Shown in pieces: positions 6,926-24,672 of a stretch of DNA of 32,459 bases (position 1 is its first letter; the number at the start of each line of letters is the position of its first letter). A program made the position numbers and the translations under genes. The notes beneath the pieces were generated by a model. The model worked only from the letters and a program-made list of their open reading frames with translations. It was not told the origin of the DNA and did not search any database. Source of the stretch: Chromatiales bacterium (lineage in GTDB: Bacteria; Pseudomonadota; Gammaproteobacteria; SZUA-152); the NCBI GenBank assembly GCA_026982475.1, contig JALSHB010000208.1, positions 1 through 32,459 on the forward strand, written 5' to 3'.

Positions 6926-7810
6926 TTAGCCCACGGGCAGGCAGTAACCCCTCAGGTATTGCAGAAACTCTTGCTTTAGTTGCGGATGCTTCAAGGCATA
7001 TTCCACGGTGGCCTTGAGATAGCCGATCTTGCTGCCGCAGTCGTAGCGCTGGCCATCGAACGTGTAGGCCATCACCGCCTCCTCGCCAAGCAGGTCGGCA
7101 ATGGCATCCGTCAGCTGGATCTCGCCACCGGCGCCCTTGCGGGTCTTTTCCAGCAGGCTGAAAATACGCGGCGTGAGAATATAACGACCGACCACGGCGA
7201 GGTCCGATGGCGCCTCGTCGATGGGCGGTTTTTCGATGATCTGTTCGACGCGGCCGAGACGCTGGCCCTTCTTTTCCAGCTTGACGATGCCGTACTTGTC
7301 CGTCTCCTGCGCATCGACCTCTTCCACGCCCAGCAGGCTGCAGTGCTGCCGATCGAACAATTCGGCCATCTGCGAAAGACAGCCATGCTGGCCGCCATCG
7401 ATCAGGTCATCGGCCAGAATGACCGCAAAGGGGTCATTACCGACGACATTCTTCGCACACAACACGGCATGCCCCAGGCCCAGCGCCTCCGGCTGGCGGA
7501 TATAGACGCAGCTCACCCCCGCCGGCAGGATGTCCTGCACGATATTCAGCAGGGTCTGCTTGCCACGCTGTTCGAGTTCGTATTCCAGTTCGAAATTGCG
7601 ATCGAAGTGATCCTCGATGGCGCGCTTGCTGCTGCTGGTGACAAAGATCAGCTCGGTCACGCCGGCGGCCACCGCCTCCTCCACCGCATACTGGATCAGG
7701 GGCTTGTCGACGATGGGCAGCATTTCCTTGGGGTTGGCCTTGGTGGCCGGCAGGAAGCGCGTGCCCATGCCGGCAACGGGAAACACGGCCTTGCGAATTC
7801 CTCGTGTCAT
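6926..7810 (-). CDS. galU: UTP-glucose-1-phosphate uridylyltransferase
   Basis: Makes UDP-glucose from UTP and glucose-1-phosphate, feeding capsule, LPS and galactose metabolism. The 294-residue length is normal. The N-terminal nucleotide-binding motif [12 protein letters not shown] is followed directly by [16 protein letters not shown]. Further family blocks are EALGLGHAV near residue 110, [12 protein letters not shown], and [10 protein letters not shown] near residue 230. It is convergent with the kinase gene and separated from the upstream pnp gene by a strong terminator and a repeat remnant, so it is likely transcribed alone. The start is ATG with no strong ribosome binding site. An ExoN-type paralogue is a remote alternative. 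Confidence 0.96.
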
Positions 7811-7840: not shown

Positions 7841-7897
7841 ACCTGAATCCGTGCGCTCATGACGGCGAATCGCACAACGTCTCGATGCATCGCCGTC
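7841..7897 (-). repeat. Solo arm of a dispersed palindromic repeat upstream of galU
   Basis: Positions 7841-7879 match the reverse complement of 20701-20739 at 37 of 39 bases, 13 kb away. Here only one arm is present, followed by a shorter hairpin in which GACGGCGA at 7861-7868 pairs with TCGCCGTC at 7890-7897. It fills most of the galU leader, between the pnp terminator and the galU start. Confidence 0.75.
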
Positions 7898-11631: not shown

Positions 11632-11804
11632 ATTCACCACAGAGACACGGAGGCCGCAGAGAAAGATGTCGAAATGAAAACAGGAGGCGGCCATGCATCG
11701 CCGGAGCTGAATGCCCCGGTTCACTTCGCTCAACCGGAAAGCCTGGGGCGATCCGTGCTTCGTTGAAGCGATTTCTCTGTGTTCTCCGCGCCTCTGTGGT
11801 GAAT
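11632..11804. repeat. ACAGAG-type inverted repeat element (truB-rbfA gap)
   Basis: Arms at 11632-11664 and 11772-11804 are 33 bases each and pair with 28 matches; both begin ATTCACCACAGAG when read inward. The 107-base interior contains a smaller hairpin, with GCCCCGG and CCTGGGGC around 11712-11749. Related arms occur in the rnc-era and lepA-degQ gaps, so this is a dispersed repeat. No transposase or terminal target duplication is seen. Confidence 0.85.
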
Positions 11805-19373: not shown

Positions 19374-19443
19374 GGTGCTTCAGCCGGCCTCTCGCGTGGG
19401 CCGTGCAGAAAAGCGGCTTCGGGGAATAAACAGGCCGCGTTCT

Positions 19444-19538
19444 TCAACGCAAAGGCGCAAAGACGCGAAGACCGCAAAGGAAAACATTTTTTTTATTTGT
19501 CTTTGCGTCCTTTGCGCCTTTGCGCCTTTGCGTTGGAT
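19444..19538. repeat. GCAAAGG-type inverted repeat (era-recO gap)
   Basis: Arms at about 19444-19486 and 19500-19538 are near reverse complements, built from short units such as GGCGCAAAG repeated about every 9-10 bases. They are separated by an A/T-rich loop with eight T residues. The element occupies about half of the gap between era and recO and would form a long hairpin in the transcript. It may be a dispersed repeat; a half-similar fragment (AAGGCGCCAAG) is at 20543-20553. Confidence 0.85.
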
Positions 19539-19553: not shown

Positions 19554-20471
19554 TCAGTCGTCCTGATAGCCGAGGCTGCGCAGGGCACGTTCGTCGTCGG
19601 ACCAGCCCTGACGCACCTTGACCCATAACTGCAAAAAGACCTTTCCGTCGAAGGCGCGCTCCATGTCCTTGCGCGCCTGTTCGCCGATGCGCTTGAGCTG
19701 CTGGCCCTGCTTGCCGATGATGATGCCCTTCTGTCCCTGGCGTTCTACCCAGATAATGGCGTGGATGTGACGCACCGGCGGCTTGCCCGGGGTGGTCTCT
19801 TCGAGGCTGAATTTTTCGATCTCCACGGTGGTGGAATACGGCAGTTCCTGGGCCAGGGTGCGCACCAGCTTTTCCCGCACCAGTTCGGCGGCCATGAAGC
19901 GCTCGCTGCGATCGGTGATCTGATCCTCGGGGAAGAACGGCCCGGAGGTGGGAACCATGTCCTGCAGCAGGGCCTCCAGCCTGTCCACCGATTCACCGGT
20001 GCGCGCCGACAGCGGCACCACGGCGGCAAAGTCCCGCTTTTCGGCCAGCATCTGCAGATGCGGCAGCAATGCTTCGCGGTTCTTCAGCTCATCGATCTTG
20101 TTCACCACCAGCACCACCGGGGCGCGGGCATTCTCGAGTTTTTCCAGCACGTTCTGGTCTTCCTCGTCCCAGCGCGTACGGTCGACCACGAACACCACCA
20201 CGTCGACATCGGTGATACTGCTGGTCGCCTCGCGGTTCATGTAGCGATTGATCGCCCGCTTGCCACCCAGGTGCATGCCGGGGGTGTCGACGTAGATCAT
20301 CTGCGCCGAGTCGCTGGTCTTCACGCCGAGGATGCGGTGCCGGGTGGTCTGCGGCCGGTGCGCGGTGATACTGATCTTCTGACCGAGAATGCGATTGAGC
20401 AGGGTGGACTTGCCGACATTGGGCCGGCCCACGATGGCCACGAATCCGCAGCGGAATTGGGCGTCTTGCAT
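19554..20471 (-). CDS. era: GTPase Era
   Basis: Essential GTPase that binds the 3' end of 16S rRNA during 30S assembly. It has 305 residues (E. coli 301). The G domain has GRPNVGKST at 15-23, DTPGMH and NKID. The C-terminal KH domain contains [15 protein letters not shown] near residue 260. I start at the ATG at 20471 ([15 protein letters not shown]). The open frame upstream runs through repeat sequence and is rejected. AGGAG lies 14 bases before this ATG, longer than usual, and abuts the end of the ACAGAG repeat. Era normally follows rnc directly; here a 338-base repeat cluster separates them. Confidence 0.97.
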
Positions 20472-20491
20472 GATGTTGGGTACTTCTCCTG

Positions 20492-20796
20492 GTTCACCAC
20501 AGAGGCACGGAGACACAGAGAAACAAAGAATGGATTTCTCGCCAAGGCGCCAAGTACGCAGAGAAAAAAGAATCAGACCTGAATCCGTGAGTTCAGGGCG
20601 GATGAAGCGTGCAACGGCTTGATTCGTATCGCGTAATGAAAAATCGAGGAAATAGCGGGGACTATTACCGAGATTTTTCATAGTGCGAGACAGATCAATG
20701 CGTTGTGCGATTCGCCGTCATGAACTCACGGATTCAGGTCAGATTCTTTTGGTCTTTCTTTGTGCTCTCTGTGTCTCCGTGCCTCTGTGGTGAATG
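20492..20796. repeat. ACAGAG-type inverted repeat interrupted by other repeats (rnc-era gap)
   Basis: Arms at about 20492-20529 and 20753-20796 both read inward as TTCACCACAGAGGCACGGAG and stay near-identical for over 35 bases. The interior holds a fragment with AAGGCGCCAAG (20535-20569) and a 185-bp palindrome. This fills the 338-base gap between rnc and era; no gene is seen there. Confidence 0.88.
20566..20750. repeat. 185-bp near-perfect palindromic element nested in the rnc-era gap
   Basis: The two halves are imperfect reverse complements over almost the full length. The outer ends are AAAAGAATC and GATTCTTTT. Next comes CCTGAATCCGTGAGTTCA in one arm and its exact complement in the other. 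Closer to the centre, ATGAAAAATC pairs with GATTTTTCAT. The centre is near 20658. The right arm recurs upstream of galU at 7841-7879 with 37 of 39 matches, so the sequence is dispersed. There is no coding sequence. Confidence 0.88.
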
Positions 20797-20809
20797 GTTT
20801 TAGGTGTCG

Positions 20810-21487
20810 TTACGTCTCGTGACCGGCACTCAGGGCATCCAGTGCCTGCCGCGCCGCCGCCTGCTCGGCCTTGCGCCGGGTGTTTCCCACGCCCTGTGCG
20901 GGCTCGGGCAAACCATTGACGCTGCACTGTACTTCAAACTGTTGGTCATGGGCGGTGCCGTGTGTCGCCGTGACACGGTATTCCGGCAGGGGCCGGCGCC
21001 GCGCCTGCAGAAACTCCTGCAACTGGGTCTTTGGATCTTTCTGCACGCGGAGATGCTCGAAGCGATCACCGAGGCTGCGCAACACGAAGGCGCGCGCCGT
21101 GGCCATGTCGCTGTCGAGATAAATGGCACCGATGACCGCCTCCATGGCGTCGGCCAGAATGGAGTCGCGCCGAAAGCCGCCGCTTTTCAACTCGCCGGGG
21201 CCAAGCCGCAGATAGTCACCGAGCCGGTAGCCGCGCGCCATCTCCGCCAGGGTTTCCTTTTTCACCAGCGCGGCACGGAAACGGGTCAACACCCCTTCGG
21301 ATTCCTTGGGAAAGCGCGCGAACAACACCTCGGCAACCACAAAACCCAGAATGGCGTCACCGAGAAACTCCAGCCGCTCGTTGTTCGCCGAACCCTTGCT
21401 GCGATGGGTCAGCGCCTCTTCCAGCAGGCTGGCCGTCTTGAACTGGTAGCCAATCGTTGCGGCAAGTTCATCGATGCTGCGCCTCAA
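20810..21487 (-). CDS. rnc: Ribonuclease III
   Basis: Double-strand-specific endoribonuclease for rRNA and mRNA processing, 225 residues (E. coli 226). The signature [13 protein letters not shown] spans about 36-48, with Glu40 and Asp44 as metal ligands. [13 protein letters not shown] near residue 115 supplies the second acidic pair. The dsRNA-binding domain runs from about 152 ([12 protein letters not shown]) to 222. The start is TTG at 21487, overlapping the upstream stop as TTGA, with GAGG seven bases before it. The cluster downstream carries long hairpins that are potential RNase III substrates. Confidence 0.98.
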
Positions 21488-24595: not shown

Positions 24596-24672
24596 ATTCA
24601 CCACAGAGGCACAGAGGACACAGAGTGCAAGCAAAATATCCTCTGTTCACGCCGTGCCTCTGTGGTGAAAAT
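24596..24672. repeat. ACAGAG-type inverted repeat (lepA-degQ gap)
   Basis: The left arm at 24596-24625 reads ATTCACCACAGAGGCACAG and continues. The right arm at 24640-24672 is its near reverse complement, with a 14-base loop. It is the shortest and simplest of the three complete copies in the window, without nested sequence. It lies in the lepA leader. Confidence 0.87.

What the first reader, a model, noticed from the sequence alone, without database searches (positions are those of the whole stretch)
20492..20796. Nested palindromes between rnc and era
A 185-bp near-palindrome (20566-20750) lies inside an ACAGAG-type inverted repeat, which also holds a fragment of a third repeat type. Deleting the inner element would leave a simpler hairpin, which suggests one element inserted into another. 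The transcript would fold into a stem of nearly 90 pairs directly downstream of the RNase III gene, whose product cuts such stems.
Basis: partly seen in the sequence, partly recalled or inferred. Interest (0 to 1): 0.68.

Follow-up and report, generated by a model that had tools for sequence, protein, structure and literature searches.

The report
Palindromic transposon nested in repeat hairpin
Between two genes that are normally joined back to back (those for RNase III and Era), this bacterium carries a 161-base non-coding jumping sequence that landed exactly in the loop of another repeated hairpin, giving a giant RNA hairpin there; it is a new member of a familiar class of small mobile DNA, caught in an unusually informative place.

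Summary
The inner palindrome is a 161-bp miniature inverted-repeat transposable element (MITE; 20578-20738, ends CCTGAATCCG...CGGATTCAGG) flanked by a 5-bp target duplication (TCAGA). About 30 near-full copies and more than 50 collapsed 20-bp copies occur in the genome, many with their own exact 5-bp duplications. Removing it restores the loop of an older hairpin of the dispersed ACAGAG repeat family. The 'third repeat type' is the usual inner arm of that family, not a third insertion. Four same-genus genomes have only a few bases between rnc and era; a fifth keeps only a remnant of the ACAGAG arm. So both layers are lineage-specific and arrived in order. The likely driver is an IS1380-family transposase: elements of that family in this genome and its relatives have nearly the same ends. 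Predicted, not shown: the 338-bp insert breaks the tight rnc-era junction and puts a plausible RNase III substrate between them. Unexpected: across 39 copies the hairpin is kept by compensatory changes, and G-U outnumbers A-C on one strand, hinting at constraint on an RNA (or single-stranded DNA); at rnc-era that strand is antisense. New member of a known kind.

The parts
20810..21487 (-). rnc (RNase III), upstream gene of the pair
   Evidence: ORF 225 aa; best relatives at 85-86% identity are followed by era. Name is by sequence recognition and synteny; no domain scan was completed (one search failed).
19554..20471 (-). era (GTPase), start codon ATG at 20471-20469; AGGAG-like ribosome site at 20486-20490 just outside the outer hairpin
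   Evidence: Sequence; the 375-aa ORF is an over-extension through the insert.
20472..20809 (.). 338-bp rnc-era gap, a few bp in four same-genus relatives
20493..20521 (+). outer ACAGAG-family hairpin, arm 1
   Evidence: 29 nt, 100% complementary to 20766-20794; family copies
20766..20794 (+). outer ACAGAG-family hairpin, arm 2
   Evidence: remnant CCGTGCCCTTGTGGTGAACCA in relative G005
20540..20554 (+). CGCCAAGGCGCCAAG: inner arm of the same composite ACAGAG family; its partner arm is missing in this copy
   Evidence: Paired inner arms in L161, L290, L300 and L302
20573..20577 (+). target-site duplication, left (TCAGA)
20578..20738 (+). 161-bp MITE, near-palindrome; 5' 20 bp (CCTGAATCCGTGAGTTCAGG) form a small hairpin of their own; + strand is the more stable RNA strand
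20739..20743 (+). target-site duplication, right (TCAGA)
20566..20574 (+). left half of the original hairpin loop stem (AAAAGAATC)
   Evidence: Pairs with 20742-20750 when insert and one TSD are removed
20742..20750 (+). right half of the original hairpin loop stem (GATTCTTTT)

Best explanation
The inner palindrome is a non-autonomous 161-bp MITE moved in trans by an IS1380-family DDE transposase. It inserted, with a 5-bp target duplication (TCAGA), into the A+T-rich loop of an older ACAGAG-family hairpin that already separated rnc from era. Shown: dispersed copies, defined ends, target duplications, the restored loop, relatives without the insert, and IS1380-type elements with near-identical ends in this genome and its relatives. 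Inferred: the IS1380 transposase really moves it. Inferred and untested: the gap breaks the close rnc-era junction (translational coupling in other gamma-proteobacteria), era now starts from its own ribosome site, and RNase III can cut the co-transcript in this stem, so rnc and era mRNAs become separable.
For: Copies: about 30 near-full matches at 88-97% identity in 3.0 Mb. Exact 5-bp direct duplications at 15 of 28 full copies (shuffled mean 0.69, max 4; one more is seen when L012's end is set at 161 bp) and 20 of 55 collapsed 20-bp copies (shuffled mean 0.54, max 5); lengths 3, 4 and 7 show no excess. Window copy TCAGA on both sides. Relatives: rnc-era gap of a few bp in G001, G002, G003, G006; G005 keeps only an ACAGAG arm remnant. 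Two 20-bp copies lie at sites empty in relatives. IS1380: own genome has an IS1380 transposase start at a contig end, preceded by CCTGAATCCGTAACTT (12 identical terminal bases with the TAGG subfamily of the MITE); G008 fragment with end CCTGAGTCCGTGAGTTCA (17/18 with the window copy; NCBIfam NF033539 E = 2.8e-28, below its curated cut-off because truncated); G001 full transposase (NF033539 E = 1.4e-99) with ends CCTGGATCCGAG / CCTGAATTCGAG, 1669 bp; G013 element with TIR CCTAAATCCTGCAA and TSD TAGAA. Literature: IS1247 of the IS1380 family makes 5-bp repeats (PMC3281130). Intergenic at 28 of 29 sites by a codon-usage gene caller. Coupling and RNase III control of rnc-era in gamma-proteobacteria: PMC10582724; RNase III cutting of Correia MITEs: PMC10969869.
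Against: No complete IS1380 element is assembled in this genome, so the driver cannot be matched end to end. Identity between MITE and own IS1380 end weakens after 12 bp. The 161-bp element alone was not seen with and without insert at one orthologous ACAGAG hairpin: G005 lost most of that hairpin. No expression or cleavage data exist.
Confidence: 0.85

Rival explanations
1. REP/REPIN-type element: two inverted REPs plus spacer moved by a RAYT tyrosine transposase; the solitary 20-bp palindromes would be single REPs.
For: Solitary 20-bp palindromes outnumber full copies, and full copies are doublets in inverted orientation; compensatory changes also occur in REPINs (PMC3116915).
Against: Exact 5-bp target duplications at both full and 20-bp copies; from general knowledge IS200/IS605-type Y1 enzymes make none. 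The solitary unit keeps only one proper CCTGAATCCG end, and it equals the product of deletion between the two TTCAGG repeats of the 161-bp element. Presence of a RAYT gene was not tested.
Confidence: 0.06
2. Fixed local structure: a long rnc-era terminator or RNase III operator built in place, resembling repeats by chance.
For: Very stable fold; a weak terminator-like match on the - strand at 20578-20597.
Against: Many copies elsewhere, target duplication and gaps of a few bp in relatives.
Confidence: 0.02
3. The MITE is moved by a DDE transposase of another family with 5-bp duplications (for example IS1634 or Tn3-like), and the IS1380 end similarity is convergence.
For: Other IS families also make 5-bp duplications (general knowledge); own-genome IS1380 end identity is only 12 bp.
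Against: IS1380 ends CCTGARTCCG occur in several genomes of the same family, one matching 17 of 18 terminal bases.
Confidence: 0.12

Closest known systems
Correia / NEMIS elements of Neisseria
   Same: Short inverted-repeat MITE in intergenic DNA, long stem-loop when transcribed; RNase III cuts it in mRNAs (PMC10969869, PMC2229807).
   Different: Unrelated ends here; 5-bp duplication; no TA dinucleotide at the termini; complementary along nearly the whole length; IS1380-like ends.
YPAL / RU-2 of Yersinia
   Same: About 168 bp, palindromic, intergenic, filled and empty sites known, targets at or beside dyad symmetry, not A+T-rich (PMC2229807).
   Different: YPAL duplications vary from 3 to 26 bp and its inverted repeats are internal; here a constant 5 bp and terminal inverted repeats.
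ERIC / RU-1 of enterobacteria
   Same: About 127-bp intergenic inverted-repeat element found within operons, effect depends on orientation (PMC2229807, PMC10969869).
   Different: Different sequence, ends and termini.
REPINs (RAYT-associated REP doublets)
   Same: Inverted pair of short palindromes forming a hairpin, compensatory changes, singlets and doublets (PMC3116915).
   Different: Here 5-bp target duplications and IS1380-type ends; singlets look like collapsed doublets.
IS1380-family insertion sequences (ISEcp1, IS1247)
   Same: Ends beginning CCT and 5-bp duplication; PF13701/NF033539 transposases in relatives with near-identical ends (IS1247 DR 5 bp in PMC3281130).
   Different: The MITE has no transposase gene; its arms pair along the whole length.

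Membership tests
MITE (non-autonomous DNA transposon) | Terminal inverted repeats with fixed ends shared by many dispersed copies | tested here: met
MITE (non-autonomous DNA transposon) | Constant-length target-site duplication | tested here: met
   5 bp exact at 15-16 of 28 full copies, window included
MITE (non-autonomous DNA transposon) | No transposase gene of its own | tested here: met
   Only 161 bp long, so no room for a transposase
MITE (non-autonomous DNA transposon) | Sites with and without the element among relatives | tested here: met
   Gap absent in four relatives; two 20-bp sites empty in relatives. Not shown for the MITE alone inside the ACAGAG hairpin.
IS1380-driven MITE | Ends shared with an IS1380-family element in the same genome | tested here: inconclusive
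   12 identical terminal bases with an incomplete IS1380 copy at a contig end; 17/18 in relative G008
IS1380-driven MITE | Movement by the transposase in trans | not testable with these tools
   Needs a transposition assay
REPIN | Movement without target duplication by a RAYT | tested here: not met
   5-bp duplications; RAYT presence not searched
Correia-like RNase III-processed MITE | RNase III cleavage of the transcribed stem | not testable with these tools
   Only the predicted fold
Known Rfam RNA | Match to a covariance model | tested here: not met
   No match over the gap at E <= 1

The most novel reading that the evidence does not exclude
The MITE family is a mobile structured RNA: one strand is under selection to fold as RNA (or as single-stranded DNA), independent of host gene direction, while movement is by DNA transposition. 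In two subfamilies with different interiors the stem is kept by compensatory changes and by G-U but hardly A-C on one strand, and spent copies collapse to a 20-bp hairpin scar with the duplication intact.
Probability: 0.3. Interest if true: 0.65.

Novelty: new member of a known kind. Interest (0 to 1): 0.48.

Why it matters
It is a clean case of two palindromic repeats nested by insertion, with order and boundaries resolved, inside an operon whose tight linkage is normally conserved and is controlled by the enzyme encoded just upstream. It makes a direct test possible of whether mobile hairpins can create an RNase III site and uncouple two ribosome-assembly genes. The strand-specific pairing pattern would bear on why bacterial MITEs are so often long hairpins.

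Tried and rejected
Complete IS1380 element in the own genome: none assembled; candidate pair of ends 1.47 kb apart in L161 (C37) encloses a 353-aa ORF that does not look like a transposase, rejected. Rfam: nothing over the gap. Sigma-70 promoter in the insert: none. Preferred orientation towards genes: none (9 sense, 6 antisense in tandem contexts). Target duplication for the outer ACAGAG family: not consistent. Orthologous proof that a 161-bp copy became a 20-bp copy: not obtained; G005 loci L250 and L254 carry compound insertions instead. A stop-free-frame test for intergenic position was uninformative in this G+C-rich genome and was replaced by the codon-usage caller. Literature search for the repeat sequences themselves: none found. 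Preference for ACAGAG hairpins as targets: several cases (window, L185, L046, L024) but no test of enrichment, so not claimed.

Full report
Observation. The arms described are there. The outer arms, 20493-20521 and 20766-20794, are 29 nt and perfectly complementary. The inner 185 bp are a near-palindrome. As RNA the gap folds at -168.5 kcal/mol, z = -17.3 against dinucleotide shuffles.

The inner element. A search of the own genome (3.0 Mb, 224 contigs) finds about 30 near-full copies of a 161-163-bp core. Aligning the flanks fixes the ends: CCTGAATCCGTRRGTT...AACYYACGGATTCAGG, 161 bp. Testing direct repeats of 3 to 7 bp at the ends, 5 bp stands out: 15 of 28 full copies have an exact duplication, against a mean of 0.69 and a maximum of 4 when flanks are re-paired at random. 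The window copy has TCAGA on both sides. Copies lie between genes at 28 of 29 sites by a simple codon-usage gene caller.

The outer element. It belongs to a family of dispersed hairpins that begin TTCACCACAGAGGCACGGAG; the window alone has three (11633-11803, 20493-20794, 24597-24669). Several copies have a second, inner pair of arms of the CGCCAAGGCGC type (L161, L290, L300, L302), so the 'third repeat type' at 20540-20554 is one surviving inner arm. No constant target duplication was seen for this family, and how it moves is unknown. A strict 25-base pattern for it occurs 66 times in the own genome and in 5 of 397 other genomes sampled from the phylum.

Relatives. G005 shares the window's flanks (TAACGAYACCTAAAAYC... 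and GTGAACCARGAGAARTACC) and keeps a remnant of the right ACAGAG arm. The simplest order is: tight rnc-era; insertion of the ACAGAG hairpin in the ancestor of G000 and G005; insertion of the MITE in the G000 lineage and loss of most of the hairpin in G005.

Driver. IS1380-family transposases (PF13701, NF033539) occur in the family. Their ends resemble the MITE: G001 (1669 bp, CCTGGATCCGAG / CCTGAATTCGAG), G008 (CCTGAGTCCGTGAGTTCA, 17 of 18 identical to the MITE end of the window, about 105 bp upstream of a transposase start), G013 (CCTAAATCCTGCAA with 5-bp duplication TAGAA), and the own genome (CCTGAATCCGTAACTT, about 100 bp upstream of a transposase start at the end of contig C118). IS1247 of this family makes 5-bp repeats (PMC3281130). 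The assignment is likely but not proved, because no full element is assembled in this genome.

Collapsed copies. More than 50 sites carry only CCTGAATCCGNNGNTTCAGG or close variants. Of 55 examined, 20 have an exact 5-bp duplication (random re-pairing mean 0.54, max 5), and 12 of the 19 with the exact consensus do. This 20-mer is what remains if the 161-bp element is deleted between its two TTCAGG direct repeats, one ending the left 20 bp and one at the right end, so most are probably collapsed MITEs. Two such sites are empty in relatives. A copy changing from 161 to 20 bp at one orthologous site was not found, so an independently mobile 20-bp unit is not excluded.

Structure across copies. 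In 39 aligned copies (two interior subfamilies), 97.9% of cells pair; 137 cells change on both sides with pairing kept, against 39.7 in shuffles and 3-16 in slid controls. One strand (CCTG...CAGGGCGG) is more stable in 39 of 39 copies (mean -94.2 against -71.1 kcal/mol). Distinct departures from Watson-Crick pairs are 30 G-U to 9 A-C (binomial p = 0.001), while transitions are roughly strand-symmetric. This points to constraint on RNA, or on single-stranded DNA, of one strand. Cautions: copies are related, changes were not placed on a tree, and the pairing scheme came from the same strand. In the window the rnc-era transcript carries the other, less stable strand, so this constraint is not about rnc-era.

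Consequence at rnc-era (inference). In many gamma-proteobacteria era translation is coupled to rnc, and RNase III cuts a stem in the 5' leader of the operon (PMC10582724). RNase III cuts Correia MITEs in mRNAs (PMC10969869). Here a 338-bp gap holds a 29-bp perfect stem continued by the MITE stem, and AGGAG lies 14 nt before the era start outside the hairpin. Likely effects are loss of coupling, independent era initiation and possible processing between the genes. None of this was tested.

Noticed in passing
19441-19537: A strong hairpin of CGCAAAG-type repeats lies between era and recO; it gives sub-threshold chance matches to eukaryotic miRNA families in Rfam.
   Followed up: no
11633-11803 and 24597-24669: Two further ACAGAG-family hairpins in this window, without a nested MITE.
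   Followed up: partly
7841-7879: A truncated MITE end (39 bp, 95% identity) directly upstream of the nucleotidyltransferase gene at 6926-7810.
   Followed up: no
L185 14-212; L046 501-841; L024 287-447: Other MITE copies or 20-bp scars nested inside ACAGAG or CGCAGAG hairpins; L046 holds a decayed copy with the second interior type.
   Followed up: partly
L239 (G000 contig C118, 17885-18061): IS1380 transposase start running off the contig end, with a MITE-like end upstream; the assembly seems to break inside this element.
   Followed up: partly
L250 and L254 (G005): Orthologues of two 20-bp sites carry compound insertions of several repeat types, sharing a further dispersed sequence (CATGAGCCCGCTGGCCACACCCCTGATCATGG).
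   Followed up: no
L226-L235 (G153, G208, G307, G271): MITE copies or 20-mers in genomes of other families of the class, suggesting horizontal spread or long persistence.
   Followed up: no
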